Source: Roseimicrobium sp. ORNL1
GTDB lineage: Bacteria > Verrucomicrobiota > Verrucomicrobiia > Verrucomicrobiales > Verrucomicrobiaceae
NCBI RefSeq assembly: GCF_011044495.1
Contig: NZ_CP049143.1
Location: 7,130,001-7,194,000, forward strand
Direction: 5' to 3'
Length of the DNA stretch: 64,000 nt
Both the position numbers and the translations under genes were made by a program. Each line of letters begins with the position of its first letter. Position 1 is the stretch's first letter. Below the pieces are notes generated by a model, which was given only the letters and a program-made list of their open reading frames with translations, searched no databases and had not been told where the DNA came from. Positions 26,884 through 62,861 of this stretch are shown piece by piece.

Positions 26884-27609
26884 TCAGATCTTCACCGTCA
26901 TGTAGGAGGTGGCTCCATTCATGAAGACCGGCTGGTAGGTGACGCCCTGATAGTTGAAATAGGTCTGGCCATTGATGACCGTGGCTTGCGATCCGGGAGG
27001 GAGCGTGGGCACCACCACTCCAATCGGCACAGGCGCTACGATGAAGGTCGTCCCTTGCTGCTGGTAGTAGACCCCACTCTGGTAAAAGTAGGTCTGGTTC
27101 CCCAGCACCACCGGAACCGAGCCGGGAGGCACCACCGCCACTACTGCACCGAGAGGCGCAGCTACCGCGACATAACCCCCGCTGGGCGCGGTCTTGTAAT
27201 ACACCCCAGCGTCGTAGTAGTAGGGCTGGTTCGCCACGACCACCGTCGTATGCGTGGGAGGCAGCGAGTGCACGATGGCACCTGCCGCAAGCGTCGTTGC
27301 AGCACCCACAGCCACACCACCCCAGAAGTGATCATGATTGTGAACGTCGATGTCCACATCACGGTGGATGTCGCGGTGCACATCCCAACTGCCACCGTGT
27401 CCATGCACATCGACATCTCGATGGAAGTTGCGATTGATATCCACATGCCCACCACCGCCCCATCCATGGGCATCGATGTGGGCTGAGCGATGAATGCTCC
27501 CACTCCGGTGCCAGTCTGCTTGCAGAGACTGCTGCGGCATCCATGCGGCGAGCAATGCGGCCATGACAGTGACTCCAGTACCTGTCGCGAATCGTTGATG
27601 CGTCTTCAT
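26884..27609 (-). CDS. His-rich secreted protein with three C-terminal repeats (DUF6515-like)
   Basis: This 241-residue protein has a signal peptide (to about 31) and then a His/Asp/Gly-rich segment at 34-95 with HRDVDVHGHGG, HRDIHRDVD and HNHDHFWGG, a plausible metal-binding region. One hydrophobic stretch follows near 97-115. The C-terminal half holds three similar units of about 40 residues, marked by YYYDAGVYYK, YFYQSGVYYQ and YFNYQGVTYQ, each preceded by a PP...VV strand. The pattern is that of DUF6515-type surface proteins. Envelope or surface location likely; function unknown. Confidence 0.82.
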   Translation of the reverse strand: MKTHQRFATGTGVTVMAALLAAWMPQQSLQADWHRSGSIHRSAHIDAHGWGGGGHVDINRNFHRDVDVHGHGGSWDVHRDIHRDVDIDVHNHDHFWGGVAVGAATTLAAGAIVHSLPPTHTTVVVANQPYYYDAGVYYKTAPSGGYVAVAAPLGAVVAVVPPGSVPVVLGNQTYFYQSGVYYQQQGTTFIVAPVPIGVVVPTLPPGSQATVINGQTYFNYQGVTYQPVFMNGATSYMTVKI

Positions 27610-50218: not shown

Positions 50219-51979
50219 CTACAACTTCGGTGCCGCAGGCTTGATGGGCGGCATCTGGCCACTGACTACTCCACGGACTTTCATGGGACGCTTGTAGATC
50301 TTGTCGCCGCATGCAATGAAGAGTTCGCTAAGATCCTTACCACCGAAGCAAATGCAACCCGGAGGCTCGGGAGTTGCAATGATAAAGTTCACGCGCCCTG
50401 CTTGGTCACACACTTCGACTCCCTCGCCTGTCGCTGTGTAGAATCTCCCCTCCTGATCGACGCAAGGATTGCTGGCATATCCTCCTCCTTCCAATTGATA
50501 AAAGCCATGCTGGCGATCGGAAACCTTACCGTCGCCTTGGATTTTCCATGCATCGGCCGCTCCGGATACCGAGCTGGAAATTGTGTATAGTTGCGTTTGG
50601 TCTGGAGAAAGCGCGAGGCTTGAAATGTGCACATCCATAATCCCTGTCGCATCAAAGACCTCCCCTGATGGCTTCACACCCGCAAGCCAGGTTCCATCGC
50701 TGCAGTAGAGTGTGCCATCATGGGTCATCACCATGTTATCGGGATAGCCTCCGATGCCCTCGGCCCATTTTGCTGCCTTTCCGTCCGCTCCCACCTTGAA
50801 TAGAACCAGCTTCCTCTTGTTGGGATTGCCTGACAACACCACCATCGTATCGTCATGAGTCCACACGACCGCGCGCGGAGCCTCAACTGGCAGATCAAGC
50901 TTTCGGGATTTCCCCTTCGTATCGAATTCAACAAACGTCCACTCAGGCGCACTGGTTCCCCACGCAATGACATTTCCCTTGCTGTTAGCCACCATGTGTT
51001 CCCACCGAAAGGGACCGCCGGACGCAGGAACCTCCGTCCACGAATGACCTTCCACAAGCACCTCATATCCCTTCCACTTTGATTCTCCCTTCGCATTCGC
51101 CTTGATCTCCTCATTCGTTTGCCAGTCTTTCCACAGCCAGCGAAGGACGTCGGGGAAGATTTGGGTGGCGTGCTTGCCATTGTGGCCACCTTCACCCCAC
51201 GCGTGATTCACCTCATAGCCAGCCCAGCTAAAAGAGCGCTCCATCATCTGGTTCGCCATCCACCAATCGCCGCAGTACAGGTTGTTGTCCCCGGTGCCGC
51301 TCTGCAGGAAGATACGGATGGGCTTGGGCTCGAGTTTGCGCACCAGCACCGGCAGACGGTCACCGCCATGGATACCCACATAGGTTCCCACACCCGTGAA
51401 GACGCGACGGAAACGATCTGGGTGATGCCATGCCACCATGAAAGCGGCGATGCCGCCGCTGCTGTTTCCGGAGATGGCAGCATCGTTCGGGTCCGTGCTC
51501 AGCTTGATGCCGTGCTTCTTTTCGATGGCCGGCAGGAACTCCTCAATCAGGAAGCGTGAGTAGTTATCCGCGATGCTGTCGTATTCATAACTGCGGTTGA
51601 AGCGCGGCAGCGCATTCTCGTTCGCGGCGGGAACCACGCCTGGCTTGATGAAGACACCGATGAGGGGCGGGATGTCCTTCCTCGCGATCAAGTTGTCGAA
51701 CACCACCGGCGCCTGATAGATAACGCCATCCTGGAACACCATGAAGGCAACGGGCTTCGAGCGGTCCAGCCCGTGGGGAATGTAGAGCTGGTACTCACGC
51801 TGCGTGCCCGGGAAAATGTCTCCAGCGCTGGTGTAGGTATCTTTGATCATCTCCCCCTTGGGCACATCGGCCCGCGGCTTGGAATCCTCCGTGAGAGGAA
51901 ACTCCGGTTCCGCCGCCTTCGCCTGAGGAGAGGGCGAGAGTACGAGCAGGAGCAAAAGCAAGAGAAGGGGCAGGCGCAT
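50219..51979 (-). CDS. Secreted esterase (Fes/esterase-D type) fused to an SMP-30-like propeller
   Basis: This 586-residue protein has a signal peptide (to about 22). An alpha/beta hydrolase at 45-300 has nucleophile Ser173 in SGNSSGGIAAFM and a His in GGHNGKH near 275; this is the enterochelin-esterase/esterase-D type. Residues 305-586 match SMP-30/gluconolactonase-like propellers (GGYPDNMVMTHDGTLYCSDG, GGYASNPCVDQEGRFYTATGEG). The fusion couples ester hydrolysis with a lactonase-type domain in one secreted protein. A role in plant or algal polymer ester use is inference. Confidence 0.85.
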   Translation of the reverse strand: MRLPLLLLLLLLVLSPSPQAKAAEPEFPLTEDSKPRADVPKGEMIKDTYTSAGDIFPGTQREYQLYIPHGLDRSKPVAFMVFQDGVIYQAPVVFDNLIARKDIPPLIGVFIKPGVVPAANENALPRFNRSYEYDSIADNYSRFLIEEFLPAIEKKHGIKLSTDPNDAAISGNSSGGIAAFMVAWHHPDRFRRVFTGVGTYVGIHGGDRLPVLVRKLEPKPIRIFLQSGTGDNNLYCGDWWMANQMMERSFSWAGYEVNHAWGEGGHNGKHATQIFPDVLRWLWKDWQTNEEIKANAKGESKWKGYEVLVEGHSWTEVPASGGPFRWEHMVANSKGNVIAWGTSAPEWTFVEFDTKGKSRKLDLPVEAPRAVVWTHDDTMVVLSGNPNKRKLVLFKVGADGKAAKWAEGIGGYPDNMVMTHDGTLYCSDGTWLAGVKPSGEVFDATGIMDVHISSLALSPDQTQLYTISSSVSGAADAWKIQGDGKVSDRQHGFYQLEGGGYASNPCVDQEGRFYTATGEGVEVCDQAGRVNFIIATPEPPGCICFGGKDLSELFIACGDKIYKRPMKVRGVVSGQMPPIKPAAPKL

Positions 51980-52094
51980 GGTGGAGCGGAGTGTGGCGGG
52001 GATTTCTACACGTGGCAAGAATCGTCACGGGACGACGACGGGGACCATTGCGAGGAGGTCCCGGCATGCGTATGCTCCTTGTAAGGATAGGACC

Positions 52095-52553
52095 ATGAAA
52101 ATCCGGCACATCTACATTTCCCCGGCGCACGTCTATGTGGGTCACCACGGCAAGCCCGCGGGCGAGACGCTCATGGTAGAGGTCCCGGAAGTGGAATGCG
52201 TGACGGGCAAGGGCCTCAAGGGCGATCGCTACTTCGATTTCAAGAAAGACTACAAGGGACAGATCACCTTTTTCTCCGAGGAAGTGTATGATCGCCTGTG
52301 CGAGCAGATGCAGGTGACAGATAAAGACCCCTCTGTCTTCCGCCGGAATGTCATCGTGCGCGGCGTGGACTTGAACAGCCTCATCGGCGCCGAGTTCGAG
52401 CTGCAGGGCGTACGGTTCATCGGCACCCAGGAGGCCGCCCCCTGCTACTGGATGAACACAGCCTTCGCTCCGGGCGCAGAAGAACTGCTGAAAGGCAGCG
52501 GCGGCCTGCGAGCACGCATCTTGAGCGACGGTGTCCTGCGAAGGAATAGATAG
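52095..52553 (+). CDS. MOSC-domain protein
   Basis: The start at 52095 has AAGGATAGG just upstream and gives 152 residues. The MOSC hallmark is GKGLKGDRYF near 38-48, with RRNVIVRGVDLNSLIG and a C-terminal GGLRARILSDGV. MOSC proteins handle sulfur or molybdenum cofactors. The conserved Cys lies in EAAPCYWMN near 118. It is 30 bases ahead of mobA on the same strand, and fdhD follows, so a molybdenum-cofactor role is well supported. Confidence 0.88.
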   Translation: MKIRHIYISPAHVYVGHHGKPAGETLMVEVPEVECVTGKGLKGDRYFDFKKDYKGQITFFSEEVYDRLCEQMQVTDKDPSVFRRNVIVRGVDLNSLIGAEFELQGVRFIGTQEAAPCYWMNTAFAPGAEELLKGSGGLRARILSDGVLRRNR

Positions 52554-52583
52554 AGATAGATAAACGAACCGCGTGGCATTCAC

Positions 52584-53171
52584 ATGAACCCGGACCCCGG
52601 CCTTCCGCCCTTTGCCGCCGCACTCATTTGCGGGGGCAGATCCTTCCGCATGGGTCGGGACAAGGCGTGGCTGGACTGGGGTGGCAGCCCACTTTGGAGT
52701 GTGCAACTCGAGAAGCTCAGCTCCCTCCGGCCCACCCGGCTTCTCATCGCCTGCCGTGAAGAGCAGAACATCCAGGCGCTGGGCGCGGAGATCGTTTACG
52801 ATCCTCCCGGAAACGCCGGACCGCTGCCGGCGCTGCTGCGTTGTCTGGAGCTGGTGCAAATGCCGCTGCTCGCACTGGCGGTGGATATGCCGGAGATGAG
52901 CCCGGATCTGCTGCGGCGGATGGTGGAGGAAGGAGTCGCGGAGAACCGGGGCGTGATTTTTCACAACGAGGCCTTCGGTTATGAAACCCTGGCTGCACTG
53001 TATCCTCCGGCTGCCACCCCACTGCTGCGCGCCGCAGTGCAAGCTCACGACTACCGGCTCCAATCCATCGCCCAGGCTGCTGTAGACGCAGGTCTCATGT
53101 TCGTACATGAACCTTCCCACATGGAGGATGACCAGTTCAGAAACGTAAACACTCCTGATGACCTTGAGTGA
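52584..53171 (+). CDS. mobA: Molybdenum cofactor guanylyltransferase (MobA-like)
   Basis: This 195-residue protein has the nucleotidyltransferase motif ALICGGRSFRMGRDKAWL at about 11-28 and the acceptor motif ALAVDMPEMSPD near 95-106. MobA joins GMP to molybdopterin to form the bis-MGD cofactor used by DMSO-reductase-family enzymes such as formate dehydrogenase. It overlaps fdhD by 14 bases, so the two are likely coupled. Confidence 0.88.
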   Translation: MNPDPGLPPFAAALICGGRSFRMGRDKAWLDWGGSPLWSVQLEKLSSLRPTRLLIACREEQNIQALGAEIVYDPPGNAGPLPALLRCLELVQMPLLALAVDMPEMSPDLLRRMVEEGVAENRGVIFHNEAFGYETLAALYPPAATPLLRAAVQAHDYRLQSIAQAAVDAGLMFVHEPSHMEDDQFRNVNTPDDLE

Positions 53172-53991
53172 CGCAGACCTTGATGCCTCGACACCCGTGA
53201 GGCTCTCGCGCTTAGTGCGCGGAGAAGCAGCCATTCGTGCCGACGACGTTGTGGCCACGGAGGAGCCGCTGGAGATTCGCGTGGAAGGCCGCAGCCTCGC
53301 TGTGGTCATGCGCACGCCGGGACATGACGAGGAACTCACCGCTGGCTTCCTGCTGACGGAAGGCGTGGTGCAACACGGCTCCCAGATCTTCGAGCTCTCC
53401 GTCTGCCCCAGCCGCTCGGAAGGGCAGGGCAATGTGGCCGATGTGCTGCTCTCCGGCGTGGAGATGAATTGGGACTCGCTCACGCGGCATGTCTTCTCCG
53501 GAAGCAGCTGCGGTGTGTGTGGCAAGGCGACGATCGACTCCGTGTTTCAGAAGTTCCCGGCAGTCACCACAGACTGGCAGGTCTCATCAGATCTCCTGCT
53601 CAAGTTGCCGGACAAGCTGCGCGCCTCTCAGTCCACCTTTGAGCAAACGGGAGGCCTGCATGCGAGCGCCCTCTTCGATCTCGCAGGAAACCTCATCGTG
53701 CTCCGCGAAGACGTGGGCCGCCACAACGCCCTGGACAAGGTCTTGGGATTCGCCCTGATGTCTGGCGCACTCCCGCTCTCCAAATGCATTCTCATGGTGA
53801 GCGGCCGTGTCTCGTTCGAGATCATGCAGAAGGCGCTCGCAGGCGGCATCCCACTCGTGGCCGCCGTCTCCGCGCCGAGCAGCCTCGCGGTGCAATTCGC
53901 CAGGGACTCAAGACAAACCCTGGTGGGCTTCCTCCGCGGTGACCGCATGAACGTGTACACGGGCAGGGAGCGAGTCGTGCACGAGGGATAA
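53158..53991 (+). CDS. fdhD: FdhD, sulfur carrier for formate dehydrogenase
   Basis: This 277-residue protein carries the FdhD fold with RTPGHDEELTAGFLLTEG near 52-70 and the sulfur-transfer Cys pair in SSCGVCGKATID (Cys118, Cys121). The LREDVGRHNALDKVLG block is also present. FdhD moves sulfur from a cysteine desulfurase to the molybdenum cofactor of formate dehydrogenase. A cysteine desulfurase gene follows 95 bases later. No formate dehydrogenase is in the window. Confidence 0.93.
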   Translation: MTLSDADLDASTPVRLSRLVRGEAAIRADDVVATEEPLEIRVEGRSLAVVMRTPGHDEELTAGFLLTEGVVQHGSQIFELSVCPSRSEGQGNVADVLLSGVEMNWDSLTRHVFSGSSCGVCGKATIDSVFQKFPAVTTDWQVSSDLLLKLPDKLRASQSTFEQTGGLHASALFDLAGNLIVLREDVGRHNALDKVLGFALMSGALPLSKCILMVSGRVSFEIMQKALAGGIPLVAAVSAPSSLAVQFARDSRQTLVGFLRGDRMNVYTGRERVVHEG

Positions 53992-55242: not shown

Positions 55243-56445
55243 TCACTTTTCGCTCACGCCATACTCTTTCAGCGAACTCTCCTTGCCCTTGGCCAAGTCA
55301 CCCGCAGCAGGATCCTTCAGCATCGGATCCGTGCCATAGACTCCACCGACCTCAGCCACCGGCAGGCGCACAAGTGACTGCGTGCGCGTGGGACTATCCA
55401 CGCAGTACCACGCATTCTTCTCGAAGCGGAAACTCTGCGGCTCGGTGCTTCCGCCCACATTCGCCGCAGTTGAGAGGTCGCTCGCGTGGAAGACGATGAG
55501 GTTCTCCCGGAAAACGCCATTGCGACAGGCAGCATAGCCCGGGTTCTGATTCTCCTGTAGGATGCGCAGCACCCAGCGGGTCGGGCGATAGATCGTGTTC
55601 CGCTGAAACACCGCGCCGTCCACTCCTACAAACGCCACAGGCGCAGCCGAGCCGGTGAAGTAACAATCCTCCACCGTGATGTCCTTCGCCTCGAACCCCG
55701 GATTCTCCGGTCGCATGAATTCGAGTCCGGTGCTCCCGCCGGCATTCACCGCACGGCTGCCCGCATTGGTGAACCGGCAGCGGCGAATGGTAATCCCACG
55801 GCTGCCGCCTTTGTTTTGCACGCCGCTGCCCTGTGCCGCAGCTCCGGCGTCATGCGTAAAGACACAGTTCTCCACCACACCCTCATGACATCCTACGAAA
55901 TCAATCGCCGAGCCGCCACTGCCCCAGCGCTCCACGTGGCATCCGTCGATGGTGAATCCATCCACCCCGGACATCTTGATGCCATCGCGATTCCCCTCTG
56001 GACCGATGTTGGTCACCGTGAGCCGGCGCAGCACGATGCCGCGTGACGGAGTGTTGCGATCGCCTCCATCATCAATGTTGACCCCATTGCCCGTCGCCCC
56101 AGTGATATGGAGGTCACGGATCTCCACATGGCTGCAGCCGCTGAGGTGAATGCCTCCATTACCTCCTTCCAACACAGGTGGCTGCTTCGGGTCCGCTCCG
56201 GCAATCACGATGGGCTTGTCTTTCTCACCTTTCAGCCCGGTGGCGTCGAGGCCCCCACGATACGTTCCCGGCGCGATGCGGATGGTCGTGCCGGGCGTCG
56301 CCTGCTGCAGCGCTTTCACCAGCGCCGTCCGATCGGAAACATTCACCTCCGCCGCACGGACGGAGCGGGTCACTGGAGACAGAAGTAGCAACAAAAGCGC
56401 AACGGCGCTTTGCAAGGTCCCAGTAGGGAAGTGGCGGCGAATCAT
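55243..56445 (-). CDS. Secreted right-handed parallel beta-helix protein
   Basis: This 400-residue protein has a signal peptide ending SVRAAE. Then comes a beta-helix domain with repeated short strands: ALVKALQQATPGTTIRIAPGTYRG, HLSGCSHVEIRDLHITGATGNG, SAIDFVGCHEGVVENCVF and RGITIRRCRFTNAGSRAV. The turns with VEIRDLHI and ITIRRCRF are typical of polysaccharide lyase or C5-epimerase helices. Specific residues of a known lyase are not evident. It lies upstream of an AlgX/AlgJ-like gene, so alginate-type polysaccharide processing is plausible. Confidence 0.85.
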   Translation of the reverse strand: MIRRHFPTGTLQSAVALLLLLLSPVTRSVRAAEVNVSDRTALVKALQQATPGTTIRIAPGTYRGGLDATGLKGEKDKPIVIAGADPKQPPVLEGGNGGIHLSGCSHVEIRDLHITGATGNGVNIDDGGDRNTPSRGIVLRRLTVTNIGPEGNRDGIKMSGVDGFTIDGCHVERWGSGGSAIDFVGCHEGVVENCVFTHDAGAAAQGSGVQNKGGSRGITIRRCRFTNAGSRAVNAGGSTGLEFMRPENPGFEAKDITVEDCYFTGSAAPVAFVGVDGAVFQRNTIYRPTRWVLRILQENQNPGYAACRNGVFRENLIVFHASDLSTAANVGGSTEPQSFRFEKNAWYCVDSPTRTQSLVRLPVAEVGGVYGTDPMLKDPAAGDLAKGKESSLKEYGVSEK

Positions 56446-56499
56446 GGCACAGCCCTTTAAGGAGCGATGCCACGCAATCTTTCCCGAATGACCGACGAA

Positions 56500-57543
56500 C
56501 TACGACTTCTTAACCACCTTGGCCGGGATGGTTGGGTTCCACTTGCCGAAGGAGAACTCACGGGCGGTGAAGACCCACACGGCGACTTTCTTCTTGGCCC
56601 AGAAGTCGGGACTCTTCACCGTGGCGCGCGCGATTTCACGACGGGGTCCATCGGCACCACCGGCCTGCATGGAGAACTCTTCCACGGCCGTGCCCAGTTC
56701 GACCTGCAGGTGATCCACAAAGCCACCCTGCTGGGCGAGCATGGCACCACCACGACGGAACACCTGCAGGTGGCTGTCGCCCATGACGAGCACCGGGCTC
56801 GCCGGGTCACTTTCCACCGTGGTCACGTCCGCGCCCGCCGACTTGCCCGCACGCTGCATGGGCAGCTTCTCCTTCGGCACAGAGGACTTCTGTGCATCCG
56901 TCAGGAGGTCGCCATGAAATTCCAGATCCTGTACCGGCAATGTTGCGAATCCACTCATGCCTGCCTGGGCGATGGCGGGATTCGTCTTGAGCTTTTCCGC
57001 CACGAGTTTCGCTACCATCTGGCACGCCTGGGGTGACCAGTGGGAGTCGGTCGCGCAGTAGAGCTGCTTGCCATCCGCCTTCGCGCGTTCGGCCTTGAAG
57101 ACCGTCTCCAGGTCCAGCACTTCGACTCCGGCGGCCTTCAGTTTTTCGTAGTAAGGCAGCAGGCTCGGAACGGTTTTCGCGTCCGCACCGGCACTCAGCT
57201 TTTCCGGATAGATGGCGGCCTTCGGCGGTACGGGCACGAGCAGGAGTTCTACTCCCAGCGCCTTGAGTTCCTGTGCGTACTTCGTGATCGCGGGAATCGG
57301 GTCCGTGCCCTCCTTGTTCACCTTCGCCATGTCCACCGCAGCGAGATCGCCATTCGCGAGGTGTTCCAGTTCCTTGCGCAGGAAAAACCAGTTCTTGTCT
57401 GCGCCCTGCACGGAGAGGTCCGTGGGTTGGGAGGCGGACAAGGCAGATTTCACGGCTTCCGGGAAATCTTGCGCCTGGAGGGCAGGAGCGCCGGCAGCCA
57501 TGAAGGCAGCAGCGGCGAGGACACATGCGACGAACGGTTTCAT
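56500..57543 (-). CDS. AlgX/AlgJ-like SGNH acetyltransferase-type protein
   Basis: The start at 57543 gives 347 residues with a signal peptide ending ALQAQD. The AlgX/AlgJ signature DSHW is at 166-169, supplying Asp166 and His168. Ser257 lies in VLVMGDSHLQ, the third catalytic residue. In alginate systems such proteins O-acetylate the polymer in the periplasm. No MBOAT partner (AlgI) is visible here. It ends 55 bases upstream of the beta-helix gene on the same strand. Polymer identity is unknown. Confidence 0.85.
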   Translation of the reverse strand: MKPFVACVLAAAAFMAAGAPALQAQDFPEAVKSALSASQPTDLSVQGADKNWFFLRKELEHLANGDLAAVDMAKVNKEGTDPIPAITKYAQELKALGVELLLVPVPPKAAIYPEKLSAGADAKTVPSLLPYYEKLKAAGVEVLDLETVFKAERAKADGKQLYCATDSHWSPQACQMVAKLVAEKLKTNPAIAQAGMSGFATLPVQDLEFHGDLLTDAQKSSVPKEKLPMQRAGKSAGADVTTVESDPASPVLVMGDSHLQVFRRGGAMLAQQGGFVDHLQVELGTAVEEFSMQAGGADGPRREIARATVKSPDFWAKKKVAVWVFTAREFSFGKWNPTIPAKVVKKS

Positions 57544-57634
57544 GATCGGGGACAGCGAGGTTGGGATGGTGAAAAGGAACGAAAGGAAACTAGGCGGAGT
57601 GGACAAATATTCGCGAGCGGCGATGTCATATTTA

Positions 57635-59869
57635 TCAAGGAGCCACACGGGGCGAGGCGACGTCGAACCACGCTTCCTGGCCAAAGGCCGTGGTGTCATC
57701 GATGACGCGCTCTCCCTTCAACTGGGGATGGTCAGCTTCACGCTCGATCGACAGTTCGTACGACTTGCCTGCTTCGCGTGGGAAACCCTGCACGGGCTTC
57801 TCACCCAGCATGGCCCAGTGCTTCACCAGCACGGTCTTGGCATCCAGGGCGCCCTCCTGCACCTTCTCCAGTTCATACACATAGGCGACCATGGCGCCGG
57901 TGTAGGGGGAGATGCCTTCCGGAGTGGGCATGGGGGAAATCTCCACCAGCTTGCCCTGAGCTTTCACGCGCGGTGGGGCCGGCGGAAACGTCGCGATGCG
58001 TGCCCCGGCAGCGTGCGCATTGCTGGCGATCTCCTCATCGGTCAGGATGCGATCGTACAAGGCCACCTGCAGCAGGCCGCCATTCCAACCTCCACCGAGG
58101 GTGAGCGACTCCGGCCCCGGCTTCGCAGAGCCACCGGGCATGGAATCCAGTTCCAGGGGCTCGCCGTTCACGTGGGCCTCAAAACCTTCTGCACTGCGCG
58201 TCACGGCGAGATGAAAGGGGGAGGTCGGCAGGACGGTTTTGCTTCTCCATACCGCCGAGCTCTTCGCCAGGACCAGATGGCCGGCGTCTTCACCAAGGGT
58301 GAAATCCGATCCGCTGAATATGGTGGTGAGCGGAGCGTTCGGTGCCATGCCTTCGTACTGCCCGGGCAACAGGATTGCCTCAAACGTAGCGGCAGGCTGC
58401 GTGCGCAGGTGAGCGACCGCCTCCTTCACAAATTCCGCCTCCGCCTCATACGTGCCGCCATCGAGCAGCAGTTCCCCCACGCGCCCGTAGCGCGCCGCAT
58501 CGCGCGCGGCCAGCACGGATTCATGCTTCGCACCATCGCGCGTGGTGAAGGCATTCAGCGTGGTGCGATCCTTCCAGAAGAAGAGCATGCCCTCCTTGCT
58601 CGTGGGCCAGGAACTGGCAATGACCGAGGTGCCCGAAGGCGCGACTGCCGCAGGAATGGCATAGCCTTTGAGATCCGCCTTCTTCGCATCTGCGATCCAC
58701 GCATCGGGATAAGCATCGCCACTGTTGTCGTGGGAAATCTGGAGCCAGCCCTCTATTTTGTCCGCCGTTTCGGAGAGGCGTCCCAGGTAGACCTGCGCAG
58801 AGCCGCCTCCCTTGTTGATCACGGACCCATCTTCACCCTTCCTTTTCGCATAGGGCCCGGTGATCACGATGTAGCGCGCGTGATTGCTCCACCGTGGATG
58901 GTAGAGCTCGCTGCCCTTCATGCCTGCGGCCTCGCTGAGGTTGATGGACCAGGTCTTCTCGCCGTCCTCAGCCGTCATGGCGGCCTTGCGGTGTTCGCCA
59001 TCAAAGGTCCACCCCACACCGCTGTTGTCCGGCGCCAGACCGCTCCAGCAGCCGGTGGTGATTTTCTTCGCGGTATACTTGTCTCCGGAGCGCATCAACA
59101 CACCCGAGTGCGGCCAGGGAAACTGCCCGCTGGCCCGCGTGCCATCCCGGGAGAACTGGATGTTGTCCGGCGTGATGGGCGTATCATCGTACATCACCTC
59201 GATTTTCGAAGGATCCTCCAGGGGGAAACGAATCAGCTTCTCCCCCTCCAGCGACAGGCCCTTGGTCGATTTCAGGTTGGACACCGCATACACGTACTCG
59301 GTGCCGCTCACAGGATCCTTCCAGCAGTCCACCGCATACCCTTCCGCGAGGCGCATCGGAGGAGAGCCCTTCCAGTCGGTGCGGTAGATGACGGGGCTGT
59401 AGTGTTTCTTCCCACCCTTGCGCACGGTGTTCTTGTCCGTGTAGAGAATGGACTCGCCGCTGTCAGAGAGCAGGGGCCGGGAGTAGTTGGCGGTCTTGGG
59501 GAGAATGGCCCGCTCGCCTTTGCCGTCCCGGCTATCGATGCCCATGAGCAGGAGCTTCTCGCTCTGCGCAAAGGTGTCGCCCTCATTGGCCCCGGCAGCC
59601 TTGGCCCAAACGAGGCGGGTGTGCGCCCCGGTGAAAGCCTCAATCGCCTGGCTGGTCTCCGCGGGATTGTCGTCCGCCGGATGGGCCTTGTTCCCCTTCG
59701 ACTTTGACTTCGATTTGGACTTGGACTGGGCGGACGACTTTTCCTTGGAGGAATCCTTGCCCTTGGTTTCCTTGCCTTCGTCCCCATCCTTGTCGCAGGA
59801 GGGAAGCAAAGTCAGCGTCGCCACAGCGGCGGTCGCAAGCAAAAGGGAAAAATGACGGAACAACTTCAT
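57635..59869 (-). CDS. Large lipoprotein with Ser-Lys repeat, propeller and LamG-like domain
   Basis: This 744-residue protein has a lipobox LLPSC (Cys25) and a very Lys/Ser-rich region, including consecutive Ser-Lys dipeptides near 48-58. A TolB-like propeller follows (ILPKTANYSRPLLSDSGESILYTD, DGTRASGQFPWPHSGV, PRWSNHARYIVI). Residues from about 490 to 640 contain a LamG/concanavalin-like fold (FSGSDFTLGEDAGHL, FEAHVNGEPLELD). It is likely surface-exposed and binds a polymer. It lies 91 bases upstream of the AlgX-like gene, so one operon with polysaccharide genes is likely. Confidence 0.82.
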   Translation of the reverse strand: MKLFRHFSLLLATAAVATLTLLPSCDKDGDEGKETKGKDSSKEKSSAQSKSKSKSKSKGNKAHPADDNPAETSQAIEAFTGAHTRLVWAKAAGANEGDTFAQSEKLLLMGIDSRDGKGERAILPKTANYSRPLLSDSGESILYTDKNTVRKGGKKHYSPVIYRTDWKGSPPMRLAEGYAVDCWKDPVSGTEYVYAVSNLKSTKGLSLEGEKLIRFPLEDPSKIEVMYDDTPITPDNIQFSRDGTRASGQFPWPHSGVLMRSGDKYTAKKITTGCWSGLAPDNSGVGWTFDGEHRKAAMTAEDGEKTWSINLSEAAGMKGSELYHPRWSNHARYIVITGPYAKRKGEDGSVINKGGGSAQVYLGRLSETADKIEGWLQISHDNSGDAYPDAWIADAKKADLKGYAIPAAVAPSGTSVIASSWPTSKEGMLFFWKDRTTLNAFTTRDGAKHESVLAARDAARYGRVGELLLDGGTYEAEAEFVKEAVAHLRTQPAATFEAILLPGQYEGMAPNAPLTTIFSGSDFTLGEDAGHLVLAKSSAVWRSKTVLPTSPFHLAVTRSAEGFEAHVNGEPLELDSMPGGSAKPGPESLTLGGGWNGGLLQVALYDRILTDEEIASNAHAAGARIATFPPAPPRVKAQGKLVEISPMPTPEGISPYTGAMVAYVYELEKVQEGALDAKTVLVKHWAMLGEKPVQGFPREAGKSYELSIEREADHPQLKGERVIDDTTAFGQEAWFDVASPRVAP

Positions 59870-61676: not shown

Positions 61677-61991
61677 GACAGCGCGACCAGTTTGAGTGGA
61701 AATCTGACGACGCAGAAGACGCGCTGCATCAAGCCACGTGGTGGAGAAATTAATCACCTTCCGACGGCTCATGCAATGGCGAGGTGAATATTCCGTCCGG
61801 AGGTAACGCAATAAATAGTCCCTACGCGCGGATATTCCATCACGGCGGGACGTGTTTTCCCAAGTTTATTTTGTATCGAAAACGTGGAAAAACTTTCCGG
61901 GAGTTCATGAGCAGAAGAGCGAATTTTGTCGATGCGCAACCATCAAGCAGATGTTGCACATTTGTCTACAAATCCTCGTACCACCCATTCG
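61677..61991. other. AT-richer intergenic region upstream of the PEP-CTERM gene
   Basis: This 315-base region holds no gene I can support. It is AT-richer than the surroundings. It contains GAATATTCC and GGATATTCC as a near-repeat, and the runs TTTATTTTG and AAAAACTTTCC. It should hold the PEP-CTERM gene promoter. No TGGC-N-TTGC type sigma-54 box was seen, although PEP-CTERM genes in some bacteria use one. Confidence 0.5.
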
Positions 61992-62861
61992 ATGAGCTCT
62001 CACAACACATCATTCCGGCTGCTCATGGTTGCAGCTCTGAGCGCGATGCTAACGCTCATTCCCACCATCGCCAACGCGCAGGCGGTCACCTATACTCAAG
62101 GCGACCTTCTCCTCGGATTCCACAAAAATGGAGTCGATTACAATGTCGTAATCAACATCGGCCAAGCCTCGCTTTATCGGGATGCCCCCTCATCGTTCTC
62201 CGTAAGCGTCGGTAATCTCGGAACTCTTTTGGGCAGCACCTTCGGTGCGACTTGGTATGAAGACGAAGGCCTTCAGTGGTCTGTGGTCGGCAATCCCAGG
62301 GACTTTAACGGAGACAATGCGACCACCGATTACCTCACGTCGCCTCAACCGACGATAGGGATCCAAAGCACTCCCTTGAGCGCGAGTTCGGTCAACCGCG
62401 GTCTCATATCCACCCGCTTCCAGACAATGAAGAACCAGTTCATTCTCCAGGACACGGCACTTGGCAATACCTATGCCGTTATCTGGGATCACACCATCAA
62501 CAGCACCCCTTATATGGACTGGTCTGAAACGGTCAGCGCGGATGCCCCAAGCGGCTTGGTCTTTGGCGTGTTCAATCCATCGTTGATCGTTGGATCAAGC
62601 GGCGACGGTATCGCCTACCCCGGAACCGCGCTGGATCTTTACCGGCTGGCGGGGGGGCAGAACGGCACTAACGGAGTGACCTACGAAGGAACCTTCACCA
62701 TAGACAATACCGGGAGTGTCGTCTTCGCTGTGCCCGAACCCGGTCGAGCTCTGCTACTCAGCCTGGGCTTGTGCCTGCCCTTGCTGCGACGTCGCCGTGA
62801 AACGCTTGCGTCCGTTACACTGGACGCCGCGCGACAGATGCCAGCGTCCTTGGCTGCCTAA
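61992..62861 (+). CDS. PEP-CTERM sorting-signal protein
   Basis: The start at 61992 gives 289 residues with a signal peptide ending NAQAVT. The extracellular body contains YTQGDLLLGFHKNGVDYNVV and GATWYEDEGLQWSVVG. The C-terminus has VPEPG, then a hydrophobic helix (ALLLSLGLCLPLL) and a basic RRRRE, the PEP-CTERM sorting signal, followed by an unusually long tail of about 20 residues. It would be processed by an exosortase not found here. Surface or biofilm role likely. Confidence 0.88.
   Translation: MSSHNTSFRLLMVAALSAMLTLIPTIANAQAVTYTQGDLLLGFHKNGVDYNVVINIGQASLYRDAPSSFSVSVGNLGTLLGSTFGATWYEDEGLQWSVVGNPRDFNGDNATTDYLTSPQPTIGIQSTPLSASSVNRGLISTRFQTMKNQFILQDTALGNTYAVIWDHTINSTPYMDWSETVSADAPSGLVFGVFNPSLIVGSSGDGIAYPGTALDLYRLAGGQNGTNGVTYEGTFTIDNTGSVVFAVPEPGRALLLSLGLCLPLLRRRRETLASVTLDAARQMPASLAA

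What the first reader, a model, noticed from the sequence alone, without database searches (positions are those of the whole stretch)
55243..59869. Candidate exopolysaccharide-modification cluster
A beta-helix protein (lyase/epimerase type), an AlgX/AlgJ-like protein with Asp166-His168-Ser257 and a large LamG/propeller lipoprotein are encoded together. There is no AlgI, synthase or exporter. This may be a novel acetylation module for a surface polymer.
Basis: partly seen in the sequence, partly recalled or inferred. Interest (0 to 1): 0.5.

Follow-up and report, generated by a model that had tools for sequence, protein, structure and literature searches.

The report
Half of a split glycan-acetylation module
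Two of the three neighbouring genes look like one half of a bacterial machine that attaches acetyl groups to a surface sugar polymer; the membrane half lies far away on the same chromosome, whereas in many other bacteria both halves sit side by side.

Summary
The three genes and the Asp166-His168-Ser257 triad are real. The SGNH protein has the AlgJ/AlgX fold (Z 23.7 and 22.1); its triad is invariant in 39 of 39 aligned homologues. "An acetylation module without AlgI" is half right.

Of 88 non-duplicate loci that encode this short SGNH protein, 31 also hold an MBOAT (AlgI-like) gene and a longer, apparently membrane-anchored SGNH protein. In 25 of the 31 there is also a protein with the lipoprotein's C-terminal domain (12 with the propeller).

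In the window's lineage the unit is split. The window holds the lipoprotein and short SGNH genes; the matching MBOAT and long SGNH genes lie at 2.49 Mb of the 7.96-Mb chromosome. The MBOAT occurs in 27 of 33 genomes with short SGNH, against 8 of 255 without. The lipoprotein's last domain is homologous to the end of long SGNH proteins, and three loci fuse long and short SGNH in one frame.

The beta-helix gene adjoins the pair only in the window genome and its congener, so it is not core.

Best reading: a new variant of the MBOAT-SGNH relays (AlgIJFX, WssFGHI, PatAB). The acceptor polymer is unknown; nothing was tested at the bench.

The parts
57635..59869 (-). Lipoprotein, 744 aa: lipobox LPSC, TolB-like beta-propeller (~74-394), LamG-like domain (~456-600), C-terminal domain (~600-740) homologous to the end of long SGNH proteins
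   Evidence: relatives in 23 of 57 nearer genomes
56500..57543 (-). Short SGNH protein of the AlgJ/AlgX type, 347 aa, signal peptide by eye, triad D166-H168-S257, GDSH motif
55243..56445 (-). Beta-helix protein, 400 aa, N-terminus weakly like PL6 lyases; neighbour in this genus only, not core to the module

Best explanation
The lipoprotein and the short SGNH protein are the periplasmic half of a four-component MBOAT-SGNH acyl relay that adds acetyl (or another short acyl) groups to an envelope or secreted glycan. Proposed steps: (1) the MBOAT encoded at 2.49 Mb moves acetyl from cytoplasmic acetyl-CoA to the tyrosine of its C-terminal FxYxxF peptide; (2) the membrane-anchored long SGNH protein encoded beside it accepts the acetyl on its Ser; (3) the short SGNH protein of the window takes it over on Ser257, or works in parallel, and transfers it to the glycan; (4) the propeller/LamG lipoprotein binds glycan and/or docks the enzymes, as AlgF does for AlgJ and AlgX. 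Shown here by computation: homology, catalytic residues, the MBOAT motif, the joint unit in relatives, the split in this lineage, co-occurrence, domain sharing and fusions. Inferred: the chemistry, the order of transfer, acetyl as the group, the role of the lipoprotein, the membrane anchor. Unknown: the polymer.
For: AlgJ/AlgX fold and invariant triad. MBOAT and long SGNH in the locus in 31 of 88. Short-SGNH tree and MBOAT tree show the same linked/unlinked division, with the window genome's 2.49-Mb MBOAT in the unlinked clade and its three other MBOATs outside. Co-occurrence 27 of 33 against 8 of 255 in 288 genomes and 19 of 20 in the nearer set. C-terminal domain of the lipoprotein homologous to the end of long SGNH proteins (hhalign 98%, E 1.6e-13). 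Long and short SGNH in one ORF with both motif sets in 3 of 3 checked loci. FxYxxF end in 47 of 49 cognate MBOAT ORFs, the motif shown to carry acetyl in PatA (PMC12148441, passages).
Against: No activity or interaction was measured. 8 of 35 genomes with the MBOAT lack short SGNH, 6 of 33 with short SGNH lack a full match to the MBOAT, and G056 in the nearer set lacks it. The lipoprotein family also occurs without short SGNH (4 of 37 nearer genomes) and as stand-alone paralogues; 17 of 49 split-type loci show none in the stretch held. Of the 25 MBOAT loci counted as having the fourth part, 11 match by the C-terminal domain only. The FxYxxF end is not specific: 43 of 49 other MBOAT ORFs have it too. 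Co-occurrence is not corrected for ancestry.
Confidence: 0.7

Rival explanations
1. The short SGNH protein is a glycan O-acetyl esterase that trims what the MBOAT and long SGNH protein attach, with the lipoprotein as its targeting partner.
For: SGNH folds serve esterases as well as transferases; AlgJ itself shows acetylesterase activity in vitro (PMC4148444, passages). Two SGNH proteins with different Ser motifs (GDSH and GDSF) could have opposite roles.
Against: Its nearest folds are the AlgJ, AlgX and PatB1 transferase-type proteins, far above the next row, and fusion to the long SGNH protein fits a relay better.
Confidence: 0.13
2. The short SGNH protein and lipoprotein work with one of the genome's other three MBOATs, or with several, and not specifically with the 2.49-Mb one.
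For: Three further MBOATs exist, one (5.72 Mb) with its own 565-aa AlgX-type partner. 6 of 33 short-SGNH genomes lack a full match to the cognate MBOAT.
Against: Only the 2.49-Mb MBOAT falls in the clade that holds the linked MBOATs, and of the AlgX-type partners in the MBOAT loci examined in this genome only its partner matches the shared C-terminal domain.
Confidence: 0.07
3. All three genes form one operon for modifying a polymer, with the beta-helix protein as lyase or epimerase of the acetylated polymer.
For: Short intergenic gaps (91 and 54 bases) and the same order in the congener; the N-terminus resembles PL6 alginate lyases.
Against: Orthologues in 19 other genomes lie elsewhere without shared neighbours across genera; only residues 38-125 match PL6.
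Confidence: 0.1

Closest known systems
Alginate O-acetylation AlgI-AlgJ-AlgF-AlgX (Pseudomonas)
   Same: An MBOAT, two SGNH proteins of the same fold and triad, and a non-catalytic periplasmic partner; AlgI-AlgJ-AlgX relay mediated by AlgF has been proposed (PMC10641220, abstract and Discussion read).
   Different: The fourth part is a propeller/LamG lipoprotein, not AlgF-like in Pfam match; the anchored SGNH protein carries an extra C-terminal domain and the short one none (in Pseudomonas AlgX has the binding module); genes are split here and no polymer gene is linked.
Cellulose acetylation WssF-WssG-WssH-WssI
   Same: Same set of kinds as AlgX/F/I/J according to PMC10641220.
   Different: Wss genes serve a cellulose synthase; no recurring synthase was seen beside the unit here. 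Not compared by sequence.
Peptidoglycan acetylation PatA-PatB and PatB1
   Same: MBOAT with C-terminal FxYxxF shuttle feeding an SGNH transferase (PMC12148441, passages); PatB1 fold, Z 15.5.
   Different: A single SGNH protein; no propeller/LamG partner mentioned in the passages read.

Membership tests
AlgX/AlgJ-type SGNH proteins (Pfam ALGX, PF16822) | Profile match over the catalytic domain above the curated cut-off | tested here: met
   113.4 bits against 26.5, profile 6-264 of 268
AlgX/AlgJ-type SGNH proteins (Pfam ALGX, PF16822) | Asp-x-His and GDS Ser triad | tested here: met
   D166, H168, S257 invariant in 20 of 20 and 39 of 39
AlgX/AlgJ-type SGNH proteins (Pfam ALGX, PF16822) | AlgJ/AlgX fold | tested here: met
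   Z 23.7 (AlgJ), 22.1 (AlgX); next unrelated row 3.6
AlgX/AlgJ-type SGNH proteins (Pfam ALGX, PF16822) | Acetyl transfer activity | not testable with these tools
   needs enzyme assays
MBOAT-SGNH polymer acylation systems | Cognate MBOAT with FxYxxF C-terminus | tested here: met
   Encoded in the same genome at 2.49 Mb, not beside the pair; motif in 47 of 49 cognate ORFs
MBOAT-SGNH polymer acylation systems | MBOAT and SGNH genes adjacent | tested here: not met
   Not adjacent in the window lineage (0 of 49 rows); adjacent or in the locus in 31 of 39 rows of the other clade
Alginate acetylation system AlgIJFX | AlgF (PF11182) present | tested here: inconclusive
   No match in the genome, but no control genome rang either
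Alginate acetylation system AlgIJFX | Linked alginate synthase and exporter genes | tested here: inconclusive
   No recurring family beside 31 linked loci; four Alginate_exp matches in the genome, nearest about 76 kb off; synthase not searched for in the genome
Polysaccharide lyase family 6 (beta-helix protein) | Match over the catalytic region | tested here: inconclusive
   Only residues 38-125 match BcAlyPL6 (E 1.5e-6); Chondroitinas_B below cut-off; no structure was predicted

The most novel reading that the evidence does not exclude
A widespread four-component envelope-glycan acetylation relay, so far undescribed as a system, in which two SGNH enzymes hand the acetyl group from one to the other, and a propeller/LamG lipoprotein and the anchored SGNH protein share a docking or glycan-binding domain that assembles the relay even where the genes are split between two distant loci.
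Probability: 0.4. Interest if true: 0.6.

Novelty: new variant of a known kind. Interest (0 to 1): 0.45.

Why it matters
Why alginate acetylation needs two active SGNH acetyltransferases was called unclear in 2014 (PMC4148444, passage), and an SGNH-to-SGNH relay was proposed in 2023 (PMC10641220). Natural proteins that carry both SGNH domains in one chain (for example from Pontiella sulfatireligans, L102) would let that relay be tested in a single polypeptide. The unit with an MBOAT in the locus occurs in records labelled Verrucomicrobiota, Kiritimatiellota, Lentisphaerota, Acidobacteriota, Planctomycetota, Bacteroidota, Thermodesulfobacteriota and Pseudomonadota (mostly metagenome bins, whose labels I did not check). 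It points to an acetylated glycan in groups whose surface chemistry is little known (this last clause is my own knowledge).

Tried and rejected
Beta-helix gene as a core part: rejected. Pairing with one of the other three MBOATs: not favoured. A linked synthase or exporter: no Pfam family is in more than 3 of the 105 flanking ORFs scanned. One search had listed 107 such ORFs (up to two on each side of 31 loci, longest non-overlapping frames, so some may be spurious); I left out two long ones (L118:13403-17986 and L123:15178-19212). Foldseek's top rows for the whole lipoprotein are trypanosome sialidases (propeller plus lectin domain, TM about 0.2-0.25, E 1e-13) and profile matches to the same sialidases are weak (E 0.02); I do not read the protein as a sialidase. 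Promoter scan: none found; terminator scan: 4 found, 3.9 expected. AlgF search: uninformative.

Literature: six searches. MBOAT with SGNH and Verrucomicrobia gave 0 papers. For Verrucomicrobi with MBOAT 20 of 22 were listed, by title diet, microbiome, liver or ecology papers. I saw no title that names this unit in the listings; I did not read those papers, and the library lacks most subscription papers, so this does not show that the unit is unpublished. PMC2824669 (passages) concerns eukaryotic acyltransferases and did not bear on it.

Rows dropped or not seen: 12 of 100 loci were removed as duplicates. One search kept the best 80 of 255 confirmed relatives. In the set of 57 genomes I scored MBOAT subfamily for 60 fetched regions plus the window genome's four loci and two linked loci, not for every MBOAT, so genomes without short SGNH are under-sampled there. 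The match list was cut off by the tool below about 391 bits. The thresholds 215 and 700 bits were set after seeing the lists (next MBOAT below 732 is 653). Counts were made by hand. Of the 6 short-only genomes, G248 and G170 have partial MBOAT matches (551 and 540 bits), G198 an adjacent one at 572, G153 one of 612 on another contig, G317 has its long SGNH match at a contig edge, and G123 has none near.

Full report
Observation. The SGNH protein scores 113 bits with Pfam ALGX, and D166, H168 and S257 are invariant in the aligned homologues (20 of 20; 39 of 39). Its predicted structure (mean pLDDT 94.5) matches AlgJ (Z 23.7), AlgX (22.1), PatB1 (15.5) and a DHHW protein (14.7); the next row is 3.6. 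The lipoprotein model (mean pLDDT 87) has a propeller nearest TolB (Z 21.8), then a LamG-like and a C-terminal domain. Its lipobox is LPSC followed by Asp-Lys.

What relatives show. A scan of the genome collection with the short-SGNH alignment confirmed 255 relatives and kept the best 80. With 20 stretches from nearer genomes, and after removing 12 duplicates, 88 loci were compared. In 31 an MBOAT gene lies in the locus, and in all 31 there is a second AlgX-type domain. In 25 of the 31 there is also a protein with the lipoprotein's C-terminal domain; by my count, 12 of these match the propeller, 2 match LamG and the C-terminal domain, and 11 the C-terminal domain only. Gene order varies. Lipoprotein, MBOAT, long SGNH, short SGNH is the order in 8 of the 12 propeller loci; in 10 of the 31, mostly Spartobacteria, MBOAT and long SGNH are divergent from the short SGNH gene. 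The long protein has, by eye, an N-terminal hydrophobic segment; it has its own invariant D295, H297 and S383 (20 of 20). The long proteins of that alignment read GDSF at the Ser motif; the short ones read GDSH.

The split. The short-SGNH tree separates 39 rows, of which 31 have the MBOAT in the locus, from 49 rows, of which none does (support 100/97). Of the 49, 22 have at least 5 kb on both sides, and 30 have a lipoprotein relative within 400 bases on the same strand. The window belongs to this group, whose rows are all labelled Verrucomicrobiota or are from the window's own order. The MBOAT tree holds a 48-row clade (support 99) made of 29 linked rows (100) and 19 unlinked rows (99); the window genome's MBOAT at 2.49 Mb is among the 19, and its other three MBOATs are outside (quick method, midpoint root). 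I read this as one module whose halves came apart in this lineage; joining of two older loci in the other lineage is not excluded, since the root is not fixed.

Co-occurrence. In 288 genomes of the phylum (counted by hand) short SGNH (215 bits or more) is in 33 and the cognate MBOAT (700 bits or more) in 35: both in 27, MBOAT alone in 8, short alone in 6, neither in 247. Fisher p is 3e-25, without correction for shared ancestry. All 8 MBOAT-only genomes have a match of the long-SGNH kind. Short SGNH and MBOAT are within about 6 kb on one contig in 22 of the 33, G248 and G198 included. In the nearer set of 57 genomes, 19 of the 20 with short SGNH (E 1e-40 or better) have this MBOAT (G056 is the miss), and 19 of 20 have some lipoprotein relative (G037 is the miss; in G004 and G056 the match is partial). 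Against: 4 of 37 genomes without short SGNH have the lipoprotein, stand-alone paralogues exist, G010 and G053 have the MBOAT without short SGNH, and 17 of 49 split-type loci show no lipoprotein relative in the stretch held.

Links between the parts. The last ~108 residues of the lipoprotein are homologous to the end of the long SGNH proteins (hhalign 98%, E 1.6e-13, 31% identity). The 565-aa AlgX-type partner of the 5.72-Mb MBOAT in the same genome has no such match. The match is not seen in every long protein: my profile missed it, for example, in G010 and G053 and in most linked loci. In L102, L103 and L134 the long and short SGNH domains are in one ORF with both DxHW and GDS motif sets intact; five genomes (G077, G109, G236, G267, G319) also show both matches in one open frame, some of which may be the same genomes. 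Shared domains and fusions are the usual signs of proteins that act together.

Mechanism. PatA acetylates the tyrosine of its C-terminal FxYxxF motif and this serves PatB as donor; the authors extend the model to the alginate and cellulose systems (PMC12148441, passages). The cognate MBOATs here end in that motif in 47 of 49 ORFs; so do 43 of 49 other MBOAT ORFs, so it fits the mechanism but does not single them out (a few ORFs are duplicates). In alginate acetylation a relay from AlgI to AlgJ to AlgX held together by AlgF has been proposed (PMC10641220, abstract and Discussion). I therefore propose MBOAT to long SGNH to short SGNH to glycan, with the lipoprotein as scaffold and/or glycan binder. 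The chemistry is inferred, and the direction from long to short is a guess from the presumed membrane anchor of the long protein.

The polymer. No flanking gene recurs: among 105 flanking ORFs of 31 linked loci the commonest Pfam family is in 3. The module thus looks free-standing, and the polymer is not identified. The genome has four Alginate_exp matches, the nearest about 76 kb from the pair; this is not evidence of alginate.

The beta-helix gene. It is conserved beside the pair in the congener (79% identity). In 57 genomes, 19 others have orthologues at 43-48% identity elsewhere. In 14 of these, the only neighbours shared by three or more loci come from four genomes of one genus. Its N-terminus resembles PL6 lyases. 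It may act on the same glycan, but that rests on adjacency in one genus.

Novelty. The parts are known kinds. The four-part unit with a propeller/LamG lipoprotein that shares a domain with the anchored SGNH protein did not appear in the listings of six searches, within the limits of that library. I call it a new variant of the MBOAT-SGNH acylation systems.

Noticed in passing
window 50219-52018 (-): A 599-aa protein that joins a putative esterase domain to an SMP-30/gluconolactonase-like region, beside genes I take, by eye, for MOSC, mobA and fdhD homologues (52092-53991).
   Followed up: no
window 61926-62858 (+): A 311-aa protein whose C-terminus looks by eye like a PEP-CTERM sorting signal (VPEPGR, hydrophobic stretch, arginines); no Pfam match above cut-off.
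   Followed up: no
window 27102-27191 (-): ARAGORN reports a tRNA of unassigned type with an odd two-letter anticodon call; possibly spurious.
   Followed up: no
L213:6004-8700, L214:7327-9921 (same genome, 1.67 and 5.38 Mb): Paralogues of the lipoprotein (899 and 865 aa) with the same C-terminal domain; no MBOAT or AlgX match in the 15 kb around them, so the family also has roles apart from this module.
   Followed up: partly
L055:6746-8461 and L056:6108-7331 (same genome, 2.86 and 1.98 Mb): Further AlgX-related proteins (the second is below the Pfam cut-off) that lie away from the genome's four MBOAT genes.
   Followed up: no
L098, L101, L105, L109, L112, L114, L116, L125, L130, L131: In these loci the short SGNH gene is transcribed away from MBOAT and long SGNH, an arrangement that could be halfway to the split seen in the window lineage.
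   Followed up: no
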